In this document: one piece after another, positions 13,140 through 20,316 of the stretch
Position numbering within the stretch: the first letter of the stretch is position 1
Layout: each line of letters opens with the position of its first letter
Origin: Terriglobales bacterium
GTDB taxonomy: Bacteria; Acidobacteriota; Terriglobia; Bryobacterales; Bryobacteraceae
Assembly: GCA_027485675.1 (NCBI GenBank)
Contig: JAIXQP010000007.1
Span: forward strand, 1-64,000
DNA length: 64,000 bases
Direction: 5' to 3'
The notes under the pieces: model-generated
Seen by the model: only the letters and a program-made list of their open reading frames with translations
Database searches by the model: none
What the model was told of the DNA's origin: nothing
Translations under genes and position numbers: made by a program

Positions 13140-14319
13140 AAAGGCTCGACAAAAGTCTTCCCAACCAACCTCGTGCAGAATACCGGATTCACTCGTCTGT
13201 CGCAATTCGCCCACGTCCTCCAGTCGGAACTCGTTCCCGTCTCGAACCCGTACTCGGCCCCCTCAACCTCCAACTCGCCCTCTTCCTCGCCGCCGCCGCT
13301 CTCATCCCATTTAACCGTCTCCTCACCGCCAAAGCCAGCACCGGCCGCCTCCCAAGTCCCGCCTCGCCCTCGCCCATGCCTTCCCGGCCAAAAGCATCTT
13401 CAACTGCCCGCACACCCGCCAGCTCATCGCCGAATTGCACAGCAACGAACCCCTCCGCCGGTTCTGCTGTTACCCCTCCCGCAGGCACATCCCGCACGAG
13501 TCCTGCTTTTCACGTGCCTTCGCCGAATTCGCTCATTCCGAACTTGCCCAACACGCTAATAAAGCCCTTGTTAGCGACACCCAGGAGGGCCGCCTGATCT
13601 GCCACATCGCCCGCGATTCCACCGCCATCGAAGCCCGTGAACGCTTCCCCGATCCGGCGCCACCCACGCCGTCGAAGAGATCCCGCGGCCGCCGTAGAGC
13701 CTTCCGGCCCCTCTCGTTTGCGCAACGTCTGGCGCAGACAGGCACGCGTTTGGAGAAGCAGTTAGCCAGTAAGGACTCCGCTCACGCGATGTTGGCCGAG
13801 ATCCCGAACACCTGCAGCATCGGAGCCAAGAAGAATAGTAACGGACACGAGATCTGTTGGCACGGCTACAAGCTGCGTCCCGATGTGGCCGTTGGCGAGA
13901 TCCCCATCACGGCGGTCCTGACCGGAGTTAGCGTTAACGACTCCCACGTTGCCATTCCGCTCATGAAACTCACCTCGGAGCGGACGACTTACCTGTGTGA
14001 ACTGATGGATTCGGCCTACGATGCGGCGTCGATCCGGACGATCAACCACTGGCTTGGCCACGTGCCGATTATCGATCCCAAGACCCCGCCCAAACCCAAG
14101 ACGCAACTGCCGTGCCGGATGAAACTGATTCCGGTGTTGGATCCGCCGGAGGTGATGCGTTTCCGGGAGCGAACCATGGTGGCGCGAGTCAGTGGGCGGT
14201 TGAAGGATGAGTTTGGCGGACGGTTTGTGCGGATGCGGGGCGTGGCCAACGTAGTGACTCAATTGATGTTCGGAGTGCTGGCCTTGACGGTCGATCAGCT
14301 CCTGCGGCTATCCCGCTAA
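13140..14319 (+). pseudogene. Frameshifted DDE transposase (IS5/IS1182-like)
   Basis: The protein can be rebuilt from three frames: VQNTGFTRLSQFAHVLQSEL at about 13170-13230, then LGPLNLQLALFLAAAALIPF at about 13258-13320, then LALAHAFPAKSIFNCPHTRQ from about 13363. The last frame continues as HIPHESCFSRAFAEFA, HIARDSTAIEARE, GYKLRPDVAVG, MDSAYDAASI and RTMVARVSGRLKDEFGG to the stop. The DST and MDSAYDA blocks would carry the catalytic Asp residues, and the C-terminal R-x-x-V-x-R-x-x-G-R-L-K-D-E block carries the Glu. Two frameshifts make the element inactive. The family name is from memory of these motifs. Confidence 0.75.
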
Positions 14320-14633
14320 GTTGTTGAAAACAGGTTCTACCGAAAAAACAAAAAAGTCCAAAAGTGAATAGAATCAACGGAAAGATCTAACCTTTTTTCA
14401 TGAAAACGGGGCCGGATTCCACCTGGACTTCCCGTGTCGTTCGATCAAGCGCCTGAACTGAGGCAATCTGCCTTTCCAGCCCCGCCTATCACACCTGTCA
14501 AGAGGTTCTCAACGGAGTTTTGCAAGTCCTTCACAGGCGTTTGCGTTTTTTATCTCCTTGCCTGTCTTACGCTTCGGTAGATGCTGTCAGTTGACGAGCG
14601 CAGTGGGATGGAACCATCGAGTCAGGAGACGGT
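14320..14633. other. Intergenic region between the transposase remnant and the terminase-like cassette
   Basis: No coding sequence recognised. It should contain the right end of the insertion sequence and the promoter of the plus-strand cassette. An AT-rich stretch with several A-runs and T-runs covers about 14337-14400. AGGAGACGGT just before 14634 is the ribosome-binding site of the next gene. Confidence 0.45.
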
Positions 14634-15455
14634 ATGCTTTCACCAGAAGAAAGGGCCATCAAGAATCGCGCCAATGCGCAAAAAAGCACAGGGCCGAAAA
14701 CGGCGGCCGGGAAGGAACGAAGCGCGAAGAACGCCGTAAAGCACGGGCTGCGGGCGGACTTCCTCAAGAATTTTGTGCCGCCCCATTCAGCGGTGCTGTG
14801 CAACCAGGATCGGCAGCGCTTCTTTCGGCTGCACGAGCGGTTGATCCAAAAATACCAGCCGCGGGATCAGGCCGAAGCCATCGTCGTGCGCAAGATCGTG
14901 GACGCCGAATGGCGGGCCGTCACCTTTGCCGAACTGTTTTCCGCCTTCTGGAACCGGGAAATCATGGAAAAGTTCGAAGGCAACCAACATCCTAATCCGG
15001 AAATCGCCGAGGTCCTCGGAAACGTCCGGATCTATGAGAACCAGGCCAATCAGCCGGCCATCGAGATCATGCACGAACGTATCCAAAAATCGCTGGATCG
15101 CATCATTGCCGCCAATGAAAAGCGGCTCGTCCTGATGCGCAAGCATTTTCCGTCCGCGTCCACGGTCATCGAACGGCGCGAGTTCGATCGCGAACGGCGC
15201 GAATTCTATCGGTCCCGTCCGGATCTGGAAGAAACGTCGCCGGAATCTCCCGAAGCAACCGAGGCCGCGCCGGAGGCAATCCGCCCGGTCCCGTCGCCGC
15301 AACCGTCCGGGACGGAGAAGCCGCCGGCGCCGGCCCACTCGGGGAAGGCTGCCGGGGTCCCGGCGAAGGCCAAGCGGGGCCCACGCACCACGAACGAAGC
15401 CAATTTTTCGGGACCACCGCCGGAAGACGAAATCTTCCAACTCGTTGAACAATAA
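14634..15455 (+). CDS. STGPKT-motif protein of unknown function, first gene of a terminase-like cassette
   Basis: A 273-residue protein. The N-terminus carries NRANAQKSTGPKTAAGKERS followed by AKNAVKHGL, a block I recall in many uncharacterised acidobacterial and planctomycete proteins. The middle (about residues 45-175) is charged and helical and may form coiled coils. The last 80 residues are Pro/Ala/Glu-rich and look disordered. AGGAG lies 5-6 bases before the ATG. It is followed 42 bp later by a terminase ATPase gene, so by position it could be the DNA-recognition (small-subunit) partner, but no small-terminase fold is evident from sequence. The position-based role is inference. Confidence 0.7.
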   Translation: MLSPEERAIKNRANAQKSTGPKTAAGKERSAKNAVKHGLRADFLKNFVPPHSAVLCNQDRQRFFRLHERLIQKYQPRDQAEAIVVRKIVDAEWRAVTFAELFSAFWNREIMEKFEGNQHPNPEIAEVLGNVRIYENQANQPAIEIMHERIQKSLDRIIAANEKRLVLMRKHFPSASTVIERREFDRERREFYRSRPDLEETSPESPEATEAAPEAIRPVPSPQPSGTEKPPAPAHSGKAAGVPAKAKRGPRTTNEANFSGPPPEDEIFQLVEQ

Positions 15456-15497
15456 GGAACAACTACCCACGGGAGCCGGTGGAGGCGGCTCAAAACC

Positions 15498-16406
15498 ATG
15501 CGAAAAAAACAAACCAAGCCAAATACCGCGCTGCTGCAACGGGCCTATTGGGGCGAAAGCCATCCGGCCGCTCACCAGCCGGGCGAAGGCCATCGCGTGT
15601 TCCCGCCGTCGGCCCACCCAGGGGGGCACGGGCCGCCCGGCGGCGGGGGCCATCCGGCGGTTGCCGCGCCGCCGCTGGAGGTGCCGCTGTGCTCTCGCTG
15701 GGCCGCCGAGGCGTTCGGCTTCCTGGCCGACGAAGTCCAGCGCGCCGTGCTCGATGGGCAGCACCTGCGGCTCATTCTCCTCACCTCTCGGCAGTGGGGC
15801 AAGTCGGTCGTCGCCGCCCTGCGCGCCATCTGGCAGGCTATCTTTTTCCCGCGGTCGCTCATCGTCGTCGCCGGGCCCGTCGAGGATCAGGCCTGCGAAC
15901 TGAACCTCAAAATCTACCACTTTCTCGAACAGCTCGGCTGCAAAGTCCATGGCGGCGGCCGCGGCAAGCTCGCCGCGTACTTCCCCAATGGCTCCCGCAT
16001 CGTCGGCCTCTCCGAAGTGCCGGACCATGTCCGGGGCTATTCGGCGCCGGCGCTTATCCTGGTCGATGAAGCCAGCTTCTTCAAAGGCGACGAAATCCTC
16101 GCCTCGCTCATGCCCATGTTGGCCACCCGGCCGGATGGGGCCATCTGGCTCATGTCCACCCCCAAACAGCAGACCGGCTTCTTCTACAATCTCTGGCACC
16201 AGGACGGCGGTCCCTGGCATCGCATCCGGGTCACCGCCTCCGAAATTCCAGATCGTATCTCGCCCGCCTTTCTCGCCGAAGAGCAGCGGCGCGATCCGCT
16301 CATGTACCGGCGTGAATACTGCTGCGAATTCCTCGCGGACGATGCGGCGCTGTTCAGCCGGGAGGCGCTTACGGCCCTCCTCAGTGACGAAGTGGAACCC
16401 CTATGA
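15498..16406 (+). CDS. Terminase large subunit, ATPase half (separate gene)
   Basis: A 302-residue protein matching only the N-terminal ATPase domain of phage TerL packaging motors. After a Gly/Pro/His-rich N-terminal tail (about residues 1-60) come LILLTSRQWGKSVVAALRA near residue 92 (Walker A variant, R-Q-W-G-K-S), SLIVVAGPVEDQACE, LILVDEASF near 185 (Walker B with catalytic Glu) and WLMSTPKQQTGFF near 216 (coupling motif). The protein ends at a TGA overlapping the ATG of the next gene. In phages the ATPase and nuclease are normally one polypeptide of about 450-600 residues; the two genes here add up to 536. No portal, capsid or tail gene is in the window. Confidence 0.85.
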   Translation: MRKKQTKPNTALLQRAYWGESHPAAHQPGEGHRVFPPSAHPGGHGPPGGGGHPAVAAPPLEVPLCSRWAAEAFGFLADEVQRAVLDGQHLRLILLTSRQWGKSVVAALRAIWQAIFFPRSLIVVAGPVEDQACELNLKIYHFLEQLGCKVHGGGRGKLAAYFPNGSRIVGLSEVPDHVRGYSAPALILVDEASFFKGDEILASLMPMLATRPDGAIWLMSTPKQQTGFFYNLWHQDGGPWHRIRVTASEIPDRISPAFLAEEQRRDPLMYRREYCCEFLADDAALFSREALTALLSDEVEPL

Positions 16407-17107
16407 TGAACCTTCTGCGCAATCCGCGGGCGTCGCAACTGACGCCCCAGTTGTTCCTCGGGCTCGATCTCGGCAAGGAACGCGACCATACCGTCCTGGC
16501 CCTCTGTGAACGCCGGTGGCAATTGGGCCAGTGGTCCGCCGCGCACCACGATCATGCCCGGCGGCCGGTCCTCGTCCTGCGGGATCTCGTCCGGTTGCCG
16601 CTCAGCACGCCGTATACTCAGGTGCCGCAGGCCGTCAAGAACCTCTTCACGCGGCACGAAGCCGTCTCGCCGTATTCTGTCTCGGTCAAAACCGACCGGG
16701 ATCTCGTCGTCGATGCCGGCGGCGTCGGCGGCGGCGTCCTCGATATCATTCGCGAAGCCCAGCACAGTCGGTACCTGCCGGGGCTGCGTCTCATTCCGGT
16801 CTTCACTTCCGGAGGCCACGAACCGGGGATGACCGGCAGCGGCTGCTATACGGTCCCCAAGCGAGACCTGTTCACGGCCGTCCGGGCCGCCGTCGAAGCC
16901 CGCTCGCTGGTCGTACCCCGGCGTTTAGAGCTAGCGGAAGAGCTTTTTAGGGAACTAGTAGGCTTTAGGGAGAACGGGCGCAGCACCGCGCGCCACGACG
17001 ACTTGGCAATGGCCGTGTGCCTGGCGGTCTGGTGGGCCGCCCGCCACGAAAAGGACCTCCTGGTAGCCCCCTCGCCGGCCTTCGCCGGAAAGACTCGCCT
17101 CGCCTGA
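16403..17107 (+). CDS. Terminase large subunit, RNase H-like nuclease half (separate gene)
   Basis: A 234-residue protein matching the C-terminal nuclease domain of TerL. FLGLDLGKERDHTVLAL (about residues 18-34) supplies the first catalytic Asp, DAGGVGGGVLDII (about 104-116) the second, and ARHDDLAMAVCLAVWW (about 196-211) the third; this is the usual acidic triad of the RNase H-like fold. The start overlaps the ATPase gene stop by 4 bp (ATGA), implying translational coupling and equal dosage. All three acidic residues are present, so the nuclease may be active. It converges with the small minus-strand genes that begin 50 bp further on. Confidence 0.82.
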   Translation: MMNLLRNPRASQLTPQLFLGLDLGKERDHTVLALCERRWQLGQWSAAHHDHARRPVLVLRDLVRLPLSTPYTQVPQAVKNLFTRHEAVSPYSVSVKTDRDLVVDAGGVGGGVLDIIREAQHSRYLPGLRLIPVFTSGGHEPGMTGSGCYTVPKRDLFTAVRAAVEARSLVVPRRLELAEELFRELVGFRENGRSTARHDDLAMAVCLAVWWAARHEKDLLVAPSPAFAGKTRLA

Positions 17108-17156: not shown

Positions 17157-17369
17157 TTATCGGCGGCCCGCACCCCGGAGCTTGCCGTACTCGATAGCTG
17201 CCCGTATGTGCTCTTCGCTCAGGTAGCCGTAACTAGCCAGGATCTCCTCGGCCGTCTCTCCGGCGCCCAACTTCTCCAACACTAATTCCACTGGGATTCG
17301 CGTGCCCCGCAGACAGGGCTTGCCTCCCAAAACCTCGGGTCTTCTGACGATCCAGGAGCTGTCGGTCAT
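17157..17369 (-). CDS. DUF433-family antitoxin-like protein
   Basis: A 70-residue protein with the classic DUF433 pattern: PEVLGGKPCLRGTRIPVELV, then LEKLGAGETAEEILASYGYL, then SEEHIRAAIEYG. DUF433 proteins have a winged-helix-like fold and are usually the antitoxin of a pair with a DUF5615 PIN-like toxin encoded just downstream. Here there is no such gene: downstream (below 17157) the sequence runs within 50 bp into the opposite-strand terminase nuclease gene. It is the last of three small genes in the same direction. The antitoxin role is known for relatives and inferred here. Confidence 0.85.
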   Translation of the reverse strand: MTDSSWIVRRPEVLGGKPCLRGTRIPVELVLEKLGAGETAEEILASYGYLSEEHIRAAIEYGKLRGAGRR

Positions 17370-17907: not shown

Positions 17908-20316
17908 TCACCCCTTCTCCCCGTTCCGCTCCGTCCCCCCGTAGTATCCCTTGTAGCTCTTGTAGTATCCGCCCGCGTACCCGTAGTACCCGCCCGGGCT
18001 CGCCTTCGGGTTCCAGTCGTTCAAAATGGTCCCCATAATCTTCGTCCCGTCCTGCTGCAACTGGTTCCGCATCGCCTTCGCCGCGTCCCGCGTCGTCTTC
18101 CCCGCCCGCAGCACCAGAATCACCCCGCCGGCCATCCGGCCCAAGATGCGCGCATCCGGAATCTGCAGCATCGGCGGCGTGTCAATCAGAATCACGTCGT
18201 ACTCCTCCCGCAGCAGCTCCAGCAGTTGCGCCATGCCGCTCCCGTAAAGCAGGTTCGTCGCCGAAGCCACCCCCGGCCCCGCCGGCAGCACCCACACCCC
18301 GGGCACCTGGCTCTCCTGAATCACTTCCCGGACGGCCCCGGCCAGGTCCCGCTCCGCCCCCGCCTGCGGAACAAAGGCCAGCGGATCCAGCAGCAGCGTC
18401 GTCAACCCCTTCTCGTTCGGCACCCCGAATATCCCGTGCTGCCGCGGCTTCCGCGTGTCCGCGTCAATCAGCAGCACGCGCTGGTTAATCTCCGCCAGCG
18501 CCGTCGCCATGTTGCTCACCACGGTGCTCTTCCCCTCGCCCGGCCCCGCCGAAGTGAAGACCAGCGCCTTCGGCCGCTCCGTGCCGCCGAAGGCCGCGTT
18601 GTTCTGCCCGGCGAACAGAATACTCGTCAACGCCGCCCGGAAACTCTCCGCCATCATGCTCGGCTTCTTCTGGTGCACCACCAGCTCCACACGCTCCGCC
18701 AGCTCCTCCGCCGCCGCCCCGCCGCTCAGCAGCCGTTCGTTGTGGATCGCCGCCTTCACCTTCTTGCCCGCCTTCCCTGTGCCCATCACCTTATCGCTGG
18801 GGATCACCCCCAGCTCCGGCAGGTTCAGATAGAACTGCGCATCCCCTGGGTCCCGCAGCGTCTTGTTCGCCTTGTCCGTGGTCACTACAAATCCCACTCC
18901 GGCAAACACGCCCGCCAGCAGCCCCAGCGCCGCGTTCAGCGGCAGCACCGGTCGCGAAGGCCGCTTCGCCGGCTTCGCCGGGTCCACAATGCGCACGTTG
19001 CTCGCGCGGATCGCCCCCGCAATGCTCGCCTCTTTCACCTTCGCCAGCATCGCCTCGTAAAGCGCCCGGTTGCTGTCCACCTCGCGCTTGTAGATGCCGT
19101 ACTGAATGCCCTTCTCGCCCTCGTCCCGCACCAGCGTCGTCTGCTGCGTGTAGTCCGCCGCCAGCAGCTTCTCCCGCCGCGCCGCCTCGTCGAACTCGTT
19201 CTTGATGCGTTTCAGGATGGCCGCCCGCTCCCGCTGGTAAGCGGCCTCAATCGTCGCCAACTGCGGCTCCAGCTTCTGCACCTTCGGGTAGCTGGTAGTG
19301 TAGGTCGCCTTCAGCTCCGCCAACTGGCGCCGCAGGTCGGTGAGCTTAGAAGAATACTCGCGCAGCGTGGAGTCATTCAACACGTCCGGCAGCGTCTCCG
19401 GGCTCGCCGTCTCCGCCATCTCCCAGCGGCTCTGCTTGCTAATCCGCTCCGCCGTCGCCGCCGAAAGCCCCGTCTGGAGCTGCTTCAGCTTCTCTTCGCT
19501 CACGCTCGCCTTCTCTTGGGTAAAGAGCAGTCCACTCTGCCGCGCGTACGCCTGCAGTTGCTCCTCGCTCTTCTCGAGCTTCACCTTCATCTCGTCCAGT
19601 TGGCGCGCCAGCCACTCGCCGGTCTTCTGCGTCTGCTGCCAGCGCGCCTCCATGTTCTGCTCAATGAACTCGGTCGTCAGCGTGTTCGCGTAGTCGCTCG
19701 CCAGTTGCCGGTCCGTGCTTTCGACGAGCACCTCCACGATGCGGGTCTGCCCGCTCGCCCGCACCTTCAGGTTGCTCTTGGCCATCGCCAGCGCCTGCGC
19801 GTGGCTATCCTTGCTATCCTCTTCTGGCAGGTTCAGGGCCCGCCGCCACGCGCTCACGCGGTTGCCGTCCTCCTCCATCTGCCCGGGCGTCACCACCTTC
19901 AGCTTGTTCGTCACTCGTTCAAGCAGACTGTCGCTCTGCAAAATCTTGATCTGCGTCTGGATGTCCATCATGGCGTTAAAGCCGCCATTGTTCCCGAATT
20001 GCTGCACCTCTTTCATGCCCAGGAAGTCCGTGTTCACGTCCTGTACCTCCAGCAACGCCTTCGCTTGAAACACCGGCGTCATCGGCAGCGTAATCAGGAT
20101 CGCCAGCAACAGCCCCAGCACGCTGATCAGGATCACGGTCCCCTTCCGTCGCTGCAGCACGCGCCAATATTCAATCAGTCCGGGCCCGTCGTCCTCGTCC
20201 TGCGCCGGCTCCTGGCCAATCGGTCCGTACCCGGGCGGCACCACGTAACCCCGATACTGCACCCCGGGCTGCAGGTCCACAATCTGCGGCAATGTCTTCT
20301 GCTGTGGCTGTTCCAT
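17908..20316 (-). CDS. Polysaccharide co-polymerase with BY-kinase domain (Wzc-like)
   Basis: An 802-residue inner-membrane protein controlling chain length and export. The Wzz domain lies between a membrane segment at about residues 61-83 and a second near 455-475, with a large coiled-coil periplasmic region between. The cytosolic bacterial tyrosine kinase follows: Walker A GPGEGKSTVVSNMATAL near 592, Walker A' VLLIDADTRKPRQ near 615 and Walker B DVILIDTPPM near 707. The last 30 residues are a tyrosine-rich tail (GGYYGYAGGYYKSYKGYYGG), the autophosphorylation cluster. It follows the Wza-like gene by 3 bp. It is the last gene of the upstream half of the locus before the accessory island. Confidence 0.93.
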   Translation of the reverse strand: MEQPQQKTLPQIVDLQPGVQYRGYVVPPGYGPIGQEPAQDEDDGPGLIEYWRVLQRRKGTVILISVLGLLLAILITLPMTPVFQAKALLEVQDVNTDFLGMKEVQQFGNNGGFNAMMDIQTQIKILQSDSLLERVTNKLKVVTPGQMEEDGNRVSAWRRALNLPEEDSKDSHAQALAMAKSNLKVRASGQTRIVEVLVESTDRQLASDYANTLTTEFIEQNMEARWQQTQKTGEWLARQLDEMKVKLEKSEEQLQAYARQSGLLFTQEKASVSEEKLKQLQTGLSAATAERISKQSRWEMAETASPETLPDVLNDSTLREYSSKLTDLRRQLAELKATYTTSYPKVQKLEPQLATIEAAYQRERAAILKRIKNEFDEAARREKLLAADYTQQTTLVRDEGEKGIQYGIYKREVDSNRALYEAMLAKVKEASIAGAIRASNVRIVDPAKPAKRPSRPVLPLNAALGLLAGVFAGVGFVVTTDKANKTLRDPGDAQFYLNLPELGVIPSDKVMGTGKAGKKVKAAIHNERLLSGGAAAEELAERVELVVHQKKPSMMAESFRAALTSILFAGQNNAAFGGTERPKALVFTSAGPGEGKSTVVSNMATALAEINQRVLLIDADTRKPRQHGIFGVPNEKGLTTLLLDPLAFVPQAGAERDLAGAVREVIQESQVPGVWVLPAGPGVASATNLLYGSGMAQLLELLREEYDVILIDTPPMLQIPDARILGRMAGGVILVLRAGKTTRDAAKAMRNQLQQDGTKIMGTILNDWNPKASPGGYYGYAGGYYKSYKGYYGGTERNGEKG

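What the first reader, a model, noticed from the sequence alone, without database searches (positions are those of the whole stretch)
14634..17107. Three-gene terminase-like cassette with no other phage genes
An STGPKT-motif protein, a TerL-type ATPase and a TerL-type nuclease sit together on the plus strand inside a polysaccharide locus. Catalytic motifs of both enzymes are intact (RQWGKS, VDEAS, D/D/D triad), yet no portal, capsid, tail or integrase gene is nearby. Decay usually destroys such motifs, so the cassette may be kept for a function of its own: DNA transfer, plasmid or phage interference, or selfish mobility. This is the best candidate here for an undescribed system.
Basis: partly seen in the sequence, partly recalled or inferred. 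Interest (0 to 1): 0.72.

Follow-up and report, generated by a model that had tools for sequence, protein, structure and literature searches.

The report
Stand-alone domesticated phage terminase family
A soil bacterium's chromosome carries the DNA-packaging motor of a virus, recogniser and cutter included but with no virus around it, in several long-kept and selected copies, which suggests that the cell has taken over the motor for a use of its own.

Summary
At 14634-17107 lie an STGPKT-motif protein, a TerL ATPase and a TerL nuclease, all intact, beside wzc/wza/NusG-like genes, with no virion gene among the neighbours scanned.

What tools add:
- It is one of seven such cassettes in this genome. 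All 19 genus genomes searched hold the family; elsewhere it is rare.
- STG lies directly upstream of the ATPase in 88 of 89 resolvable copies and in one ORF with it in 15. In 12 of 22 phage contigs found with STG queries, an STG protein sits in the small-terminase position before a TerL-like ORF. STG is therefore most likely a small terminase, and the window trio is TerS plus a TerL split into two overlapping genes.
- Six of this genome's seven cassettes sit at the same chromosomal sites in sister species; one (C9) does not. dN/dS is 0.03-0.47; the nuclease triad is invariant in 37 copies.
- A TCACA/AT-rich box precedes 55 of 68 copies (25 of 256 controls).

This is neither prophage decay nor a freshly moving element, but a mostly vertically inherited, selected, stand-alone terminase. 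Its job is unproven. I favour interference with invading DNA or phage packaging (about 0.4); in-place DNA transfer is the bold rival.

The parts
14530..14560 (+). upstream box TTCACA-N15-TATCTCC, starting 104 nt before the STG start codon; the window's version of the cassette box
14634..15455 (+). STG protein (273 aa), putative small terminase subunit
15498..16406 (+). TerL ATPase as a separate gene (302 aa; RQWGKS Walker A, ALILVDEA Walker B)
16403..17107 (+). TerL RNase H-type nuclease as a separate gene (234 aa), ATGA overlap with the ATPase gene
17187..17351 (-). DUF433 gene next to the cassette; neighbour, not a core part
17911..20316 (-). wzc-like gene; conserved neighbour that marks the locus in sister species

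Best explanation
The cassette is a stand-alone, domesticated tailed-phage terminase: STG is a small subunit (TerS-like recogniser) and the other two genes are the ATPase and nuclease halves of one large subunit (TerL). SHOWN: it belongs to a multi-locus family, is mostly inherited vertically at fixed sites, is under purifying selection, and has a conserved upstream box. INFERRED: STG binds DNA (its own box, and related sites in foreign DNA), loads the ATPase and directs the nuclease, expressed under control of the box and, in some copies, a leader terminator. The most likely benefit is interference: capturing, cutting or mis-packaging invading phage or plasmid DNA, or competing with a phage's own terminase. 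Probabilities: domesticated selected terminase about 0.9; STG is a TerS about 0.8; phage or foreign-DNA interference about 0.4.
For: STG directly upstream on the same strand in 88 of 89 resolvable copies among 111 examined, in one ORF with the ATPase in 15. In 12 of 22 IMG/VR contigs found with STG queries an STG-HMM protein precedes a long ORF, a thirteenth (L394) has an STG motif frame there too; these ORFs are all homologous to that of L390, 41-100% identical, which matches phrog_2 terminase; portal genes follow in L384 and L396. Phage and cassette STG align at 98.4% probability over 41 columns. Six of seven G000 cassettes share flanking genes with a cassette in G001 and/or G017; the wzc-site cassette is also in G016 and G011. 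dN/dS: NUC 0.03-0.28, ATP 0.03-0.38, STG 0.09-0.47. Several tree clades by locus follow the species. Box in 55 of 68 against 25 of 256 controls. Interference is suggested only indirectly: fast evolution, variable copy number and some neighbours of defence type (BrxL, DndB by Pfam; type I R-M and CRISPR-like genes by eye).
Against: No function was tested. STG shares only a ~41-residue motif with the phage TerS-position proteins, and those phages' TerL is at best distantly related to the cassette TerL (ATPase profile E 6e-5 and 3e-4 for two of 14 ORFs, nuclease profile none below 0.04, in a 14-sequence search). The STG model has no PDB or BFVD match at E 0.001. Defence neighbourhood is weak in numbers: 4 of 32 PIN/DUF433 hits within 5 kb of a G000 cassette (compared by eye). 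PADLOC knows none of the three proteins. 29 of 111 copies lack the nuclease within about 3 kb, so cutting in cis is dispensable. One of seven cassettes (C9) is at a different site from its nearest G001 relative, in the window-type tree clade copies of two sites intermix with weak support, and lineage-specific expansions look like recent dispersal.
Confidence: 0.53

Rival explanations
1. In-place transfer: the cassette packages its own chromosomal neighbourhood, starting at or near the box, into the heads of co-infecting phages. The locus spreads by transduction and homologous recombination at the same site, so it looks vertical while being selfish.
For: A complete TerS-TerL set without a head; box at the 5' edge of homology of three recent G004 paralogues (L352-L354); syntenic copies under selection.
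Against: The box also stands before the detached nuclease gene of G016 and, by eye, of G011, which suits an operator better. Nuclease-less copies are still constrained. Of seven genus genomes only G000 has the one portal family searched. Several tree clades follow the species.
Confidence: 0.2
2. A transposable-type selfish element with TerL as its mobilising enzyme; STG-only copies are non-autonomous.
For: 2-27 TerL matches per genus genome; 22 STG hits at E below 0.002 in G000; recent paralogue sets at different contigs of G004 and others; homology of three copies starting at the box; C9 and its G001 relative share 1.5 kb that ends at the TerL stop and no flanking gene; copies at contig ends (9 of 23 within 1 kb).
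Against: Orthologous, non-moving copies keep low dN/dS. No inverted box or right-end motif was seen in the alignments read; some paralogue pairs share sequence well upstream of the box (L362/L364). The nearest ATPase lies in another species for 76 of 110.
Confidence: 0.14
3. Host DNA housekeeping (repair, recombination or DNA trimming) unrelated to phages.
For: Present in all 19 genus genomes searched; locus-specific constraint.
Against: Rare in other genera of the family (4 of 18); fast evolution and variable copy number; nuclease often lost.
Confidence: 0.15
4. Remnants of decayed prophages.
For: Terminase genes come from phages; some copies are broken (L314, L335, L359, L364).
Against: Walker A pattern in 103 of 111 and B in 104 of 111, four of the eight A misses being contig cuts; nuclease motifs in 71 of 77; dN/dS far below 1; recurring small cassette without other phage genes.
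Confidence: 0.04

Closest known systems
Tailed-phage terminase (TerS-TerL), nearest TerL in Thermus phage Riverbug and Meiothermus phage MMP17
   Same: Same two enzymatic domains; the fused C9 TerL is 33% and 32% identical over 92% and 90% of its length; Riverbug has TerS, portal, protease, head and tail genes after TerL
   Different: No portal, capsid or tail; multi-copy and chromosomal; nuclease in a separate ORF in 36 of 111 copies and ATPase in one ORF with STG in 15
IMG/VR phage group with STG-TerL-portal order (L383-L396)
   Same: STG motif protein immediately before a TerL-like ORF, with portal phrog_30703 next in the two contigs checked, L384 and L396
   Different: Virion gene clusters; TerL about 600 aa and at best distantly related to the cassette TerL; outside the ~41-residue motif STG is not recognisably alike
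Phage-inducible chromosomal islands (terminase genes carried by satellites; recalled)
   Same: Terminase genes on the chromosome without a full virion set
   Different: No integrase among the window cassette's neighbours scanned; fixed sites across sister species for six of seven copies
Gene transfer agents (recalled)
   Same: Domesticated phage packaging under host selection
   Different: No head or tail genes found beside the window cassette; Portal_Mu in 1 of 7 genomes only, on a contig without a cassette hit
Tab, a prophage-encoded assembly blocker (PMC10884400; abstract and outline seen)
   Same: Precedent for defence by blocking virion assembly
   Different: Tab acts on tail assembly and is not a terminase

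Membership tests
TerL (large terminase) | P-loop packaging ATPase with Walker A and B | tested here: met
   PF03237 above cut-off; RQWGKS and VDEA; profile matches to T4 gp17 and other TerL chains
TerL (large terminase) | RNase H-type nuclease with acidic triad | tested here: met
   Invariant D7, D89, D184/D185 in 37 copies; fold matches to terminase nucleases; PF17289 just below cut-off
TerL (large terminase) | Both domains in one chain | tested here: not met
   Two genes in the window; separate in 36 and fused in 41 of 111 copies
TerL (large terminase) | Acts with a portal and capsid encoded nearby | tested here: not met
   No virion genes among the window neighbours scanned
TerS (small terminase) | Gene next to TerL | tested here: met
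   88 of 89 resolvable cassettes; before a TerL-like ORF in 12 of 22 phage contigs
TerS (small terminase) | HTH plus oligomerising helices fold | tested here: inconclusive
   All-helical model, pLDDT 77, no PDB or BFVD match at E 0.001
TerS (small terminase) | Binds a pac/cos site | not testable with these tools
   A conserved box exists upstream; binding not tested
Gene transfer agent | Complete head-tail cluster under host control | tested here: inconclusive
   None beside the window cassette; elsewhere only one portal family was searched, in 7 genomes
Phage satellite (PICI-like) | Integrase beside the terminase | tested here: not met
   No phage integrase among the window neighbours scanned; attachment sites were not sought
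Transposable element | Terminal repeats, target duplications, polymorphic insertion | tested here: inconclusive
   5' box shared, no right end found; six of seven syntenic, one at another site
Known anti-phage system | Match to a PADLOC model | tested here: not met
   0 families at E 1 for the three proteins

The most novel reading that the evidence does not exclude
A virus-free terminase used as a chromosomal locus driver: each cassette marks its own site with a box, and its TerS-TerL loads neighbouring DNA into the heads of any infecting phage. The cell gains both phage interference (heads filled with host DNA) and site-specific spread of the locus through the population by transduction, without the cassette leaving its place. 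Dispersed STG-only genes would serve as further loading sites.
Probability: 0.12. Interest if true: 0.95.

Novelty: new variant of a known kind. Interest (0 to 1): 0.68.

Why it matters
Domesticated phage parts are known as tails, whole gene transfer agents or satellites (recalled). A terminase alone, kept at several fixed sites by selection without a head to fill, would show that the packaging motor itself can be turned into a host tool. It also gives a label (the STG motif) for small terminases that match no Pfam family here, and a natural set of split, fused and nuclease-free terminases for asking which part the cell selects for.

Tried and rejected
Rejected: prophage decay (constraint, no other phage genes found); a fresh mobile element for most copies (syntenic); membership in a known defence family (PADLOC).

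TA/defence enrichment was tried in G000 and is weak (3 of 16 PIN, 1 of 16 DUF433 within 5 kb, compared by eye). Folding energy alone separates STG upstream regions only modestly from controls (39 of 68 against 97 of 256 below -18 kcal/mol); the strict stem-plus-T-tail test does so (21 of 68 against 1 of 260). The box profile, trained on 54 segments, recovered only 21 places before STG genes and was run on loci around cassettes, not on a whole genome, so it cannot show that the box is absent elsewhere. Close viral relatives of TerL were sought in IMG/VR with single proteins: 3 and 7 loci, at most 30% identity. The first dN/dS pass used stop-to-stop frames and mispaired two C51 nuclease comparisons (aa identity 0.24-0.30); all pairs were redone on HMM cores, where one STG pair (L079/L285) was saturated and gave no value; two of the groups (L346/L347, L352/L353) are within-genome paralogues. 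One locus (L081) was left out as a nuclease-only piece. For some searches flank proteins were given of 186 left after removing near-duplicates from 234 (28 of 29 chosen loci; L089 gave no cassette anchor), and only the first 25 of 109 and 155 families are listed, so absence of virion genes there is not complete. In one search four of the 24 STG hits were left out (two very weak, two without a contig length at hand) and three TerL places added. Searches in print, open-access PMC only: 'STGPRT/STGPKT' 0 papers; six orphan/solitary/standalone/domesticated terminase phrases 0 papers; Sulfopaludibacter with terminase 0; split-terminase terms 0. No Rfam search was made.
Full report
1. The observation. 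The ATPase matches PF03237 above its cut-off and the nuclease matches PF17289 just below its own; PHROGs call the first a terminase large subunit. The nuclease model (pLDDT 89.5) has terminase nucleases as its 16 best PDB matches. ATPase and nuclease genes overlap by ATGA at 16403-16406; the C51 copy has the same kind of overlap and the C33 copy a 9-nt gap. Proteins from 7.9 to 24.6 kb are polysaccharide, wzc, wza, NusG-like, TPR and radical-SAM genes, a DUF433 gene and a transposase remnant; none scanned is a virion protein or a phage integrase.

2. It is a family in this genome. PF03237 finds eight places in the 6.59 Mb genome. Seven are solitary cassettes (window C54, C23, C26, C9, C33, C51, C18); the eighth (C34) lies in a run of phage-like genes, read by eye from translations. 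The STG protein finds 24 places, 22 of them at E below 0.002, so many STG genes stand without TerL. Six of those, aligned, keep variants of 'CCCGAAGTGTGCCC' downstream, which would encode PEVCP-like residues, the TerL N-terminus of some other copies; I read them as cassettes that lost TerL (inference).

3. Distribution. With the TerL alignment 19 of 19 genus genomes match (2-27 matches each, pieces counted apart), 4 of 18 genomes of other genera in the family, 6 of 20 in the rest of the order and 1 of 4 in the rest of the class (E 1e-10); in a phylum sample 8 of 297 including this genome (E 1e-15). With the STG alignment 4 of 199 phylum genomes match, this one included (E 1e-6). Contig lengths identify G017 as Candidatus Sulfopaludibacter sp. 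SbA3 (MAG) and G001 as Acidobacteria bacterium Ga0077553 (MAG).

4. Gene order. I examined 111 ATPase-bearing copies from the 19 genomes (not every match was fetched). STG lies directly upstream on the same strand in 88; 22 are cut by a contig end; one (L089) lacks it. In 15 of the 88 STG and ATPase are one ORF: the motif is clear in 12, altered in L369, missing in L367 and cut by the contig in L345; they come from G002, G004, G005, G010, G013 and G018. The nuclease is fused to the ATPase in 41, separate in 36, absent within about 3 kb in 29 and cut off in 5. In other Acidobacteria STG also lies divergently beside TerL (L168, L169, L172, L173, L182, L194).

5. What STG is. No Pfam match at E 0.01 in 41 members and one PHROG match in one member; all-helical model without a PDB or BFVD match at E 0.001. 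Two scans of viral contigs with STG alignments gave 18 and 4 contigs. In 12 of these 22 an STG-HMM protein directly precedes, on the same strand, an ORF of 579-678 aa, or a piece of one in L385 and L395; L389 and L390 carry identical ORFs, and L394 has an STG frame in the same place that my ORF picker missed. All these ORFs are homologous to that of L390 (41-100% identity), which matches phrog_2 terminase at 1.2e-13; the L396 ORF matches phrog_5909 terminase weakly and the L384 ORF matched nothing; portal matches follow in L384 and L396. In the other nine contigs no such order was seen. The phage and cassette STG profiles align at 98.4% probability, over 41 columns only, and these phage TerLs are at best distantly related to the cassette TerL. 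STG is therefore most likely a small terminase marked by the motif, but the phages with the motif are not close ancestors.

6. Descent. Six of the seven G000 cassettes share flanking genes with a cassette in G001 and/or G017, flank proteins mostly 75-98% identical; C23 is tied by one flanking gene, and its G017 partner lacks STG. C9 is different: its nearest G001 relative is 81% identical over 1.5 kb, ending at the TerL stop, with no flanking gene in common. The deoA site has the cassette in G000, G001 and G017; in the stretches fetched around deoA of twelve other genomes (L109-L120, upstream reach differing) no cassette gene is found. The window (wzc) site has it also in G016 and G011; G004 has a more distant cassette beside wzc; G003 has none; G006 and G009 end at the contig edge on that side. 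In G016 and G011 small genes, some of toxin-antitoxin type by eye, sit between nuclease and ATPase, yet all three cassette genes are open. A tree of 110 ATPases and five outgroups repeats (G000,(G001,G017)) and (G015,(G016,G009)) in several locus clades; in the window-type clade copies of the wzc site and of the C23 site intermix with weak support, and some deep joins are flagged as unsure. The nearest relative lies in another species for 76 of 110 ATPases, 61 of 82 STG and 69 of 77 nucleases.

7. Selection. Nei-Gojobori dN/dS on HMM cores: NUC 0.03-0.28, ATP 0.03-0.38, STG 0.09-0.47; for the window site NUC 0.12-0.22, ATP 0.29-0.38, STG 0.10-0.28, with STG dS near saturation. Copies without a nuclease are constrained too (ATP 0.08 for L348/L377). 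Walker A was found in 103 of 111 and Walker B in 104 of 111; all three nuclease motifs in 71 of 77; D7, D89 and HDD are invariant in 37 nucleases of 27-85% identity to the window's.

8. The upstream region. A [GT]TCAC[AG] box 70-260 nt before the STG start occurs in 55 of 68 copies against 25 of 256 control genes, often followed by AAATATTTT-like DNA. A profile of it finds 23 hits in 1.47 Mb of redundant loci around cassettes: 21 before an STG gene and two at one place, before the detached nuclease of G016; it is insensitive, being trained on 54. The detached nuclease of G011 has a similar stretch by eye. This favours an operator or promoter element over a packaging site or an element end. A terminator-like hairpin lies within 170 nt before STG in 21 of 68 against 1 of 260 controls; the window copy has the box but no such hairpin.

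9. Mechanism. Shown: parts, order, one-ORF copies, descent, constraint, box. Inferred: STG recognises DNA and loads the ATPase; the nuclease cuts; the box controls expression. For the benefit I rank interference with phage or foreign DNA first (about 0.4), then in-place packaging and transfer (0.2), housekeeping (0.15), selfish transposition (0.14) and decay (0.04). Selection on non-moving orthologues is the main argument against a purely selfish element; loss of the nuclease in 29 of 111 copies argues that recognition and ATPase matter more than cutting.

10. Comparison. Nearest phage TerLs to the fused C9 copy are Thermus phage Riverbug (33%) and Meiothermus phage MMP17 (32%). A 2018 survey of acidobacterial genomes (PMC5900883; only the four passages on 'terminase' seen) counts terminase genes as prophage markers; those passages do not discuss stand-alone terminases. 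Tab (PMC10884400; abstract and outline) is a precedent for defence at the assembly stage. Library searches for orphan or domesticated terminases found nothing.

11. Limits. No experiment; genomes are drafts with copies at contig ends (9 of 23 G000 sites within 1 kb of an end against 1.6% expected), so copy numbers are uncertain; flank scans list only top families; STG as TerS rests on position, one-ORF copies and a short motif.

Noticed in passing
G000 contigs C4, C16, C31, C42, C53 and others: STG/TerL copies pile up at contig ends (9 of 23 within 1 kb, expected 1.6%); C16, C42 and C53 share 95-99 identical bases at STG, which points to repeats or gene conversion.
   Followed up: partly
L284:5888-10964 and L285:6528-11561: Small genes, some of toxin-antitoxin type by eye, have entered between nuclease, ATPase and (L284) STG on the other strand without breaking them.
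   Followed up: partly
upstream of STG in 21 of 68 loci, e.g. L331, L352, L377: Terminator-like hairpins of differing sequence at a similar place just before the STG start, a possible leader attenuator.
   Followed up: partly
L011:7830-7868, L073:6188-6226, L299:1617-1781, L087:6064-6422: A 39-bp palindromic (REP-like) repeat stands near the edge of several cassettes, left of one and right of others.
   Followed up: partly
L165, L177, L180, L199, L204, L209 and others: Other phyla carry an HTH-like protein, a TerL ATPase and a separate TerL nuclease in a row, some beside primase-, integrase- or tape-measure-like genes, labels by eye.
   Followed up: no
L183:7968-9185 and L187:3653-4870: Two archaeal MAGs have a lone fused TerL at the same site between the same host genes.
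   Followed up: no
L169:7540-7900: Divergent STG and TerL genes with an inverted repeat ending in TGTGAAC/GTTCACA between them, next to CRISPR-cas-like genes by eye.
   Followed up: no
G000:C43:3381-4397: Mu-type portal gene, the only match in seven genus genomes.
   Followed up: no
window 13435-14319: Remnant of a DDE transposase just upstream of the cassette, weak matches only.
   Followed up: no
L343 and L373: Nuclease genes of G004 and G005 are nearly identical, a recent shared or transferred copy.
   Followed up: no
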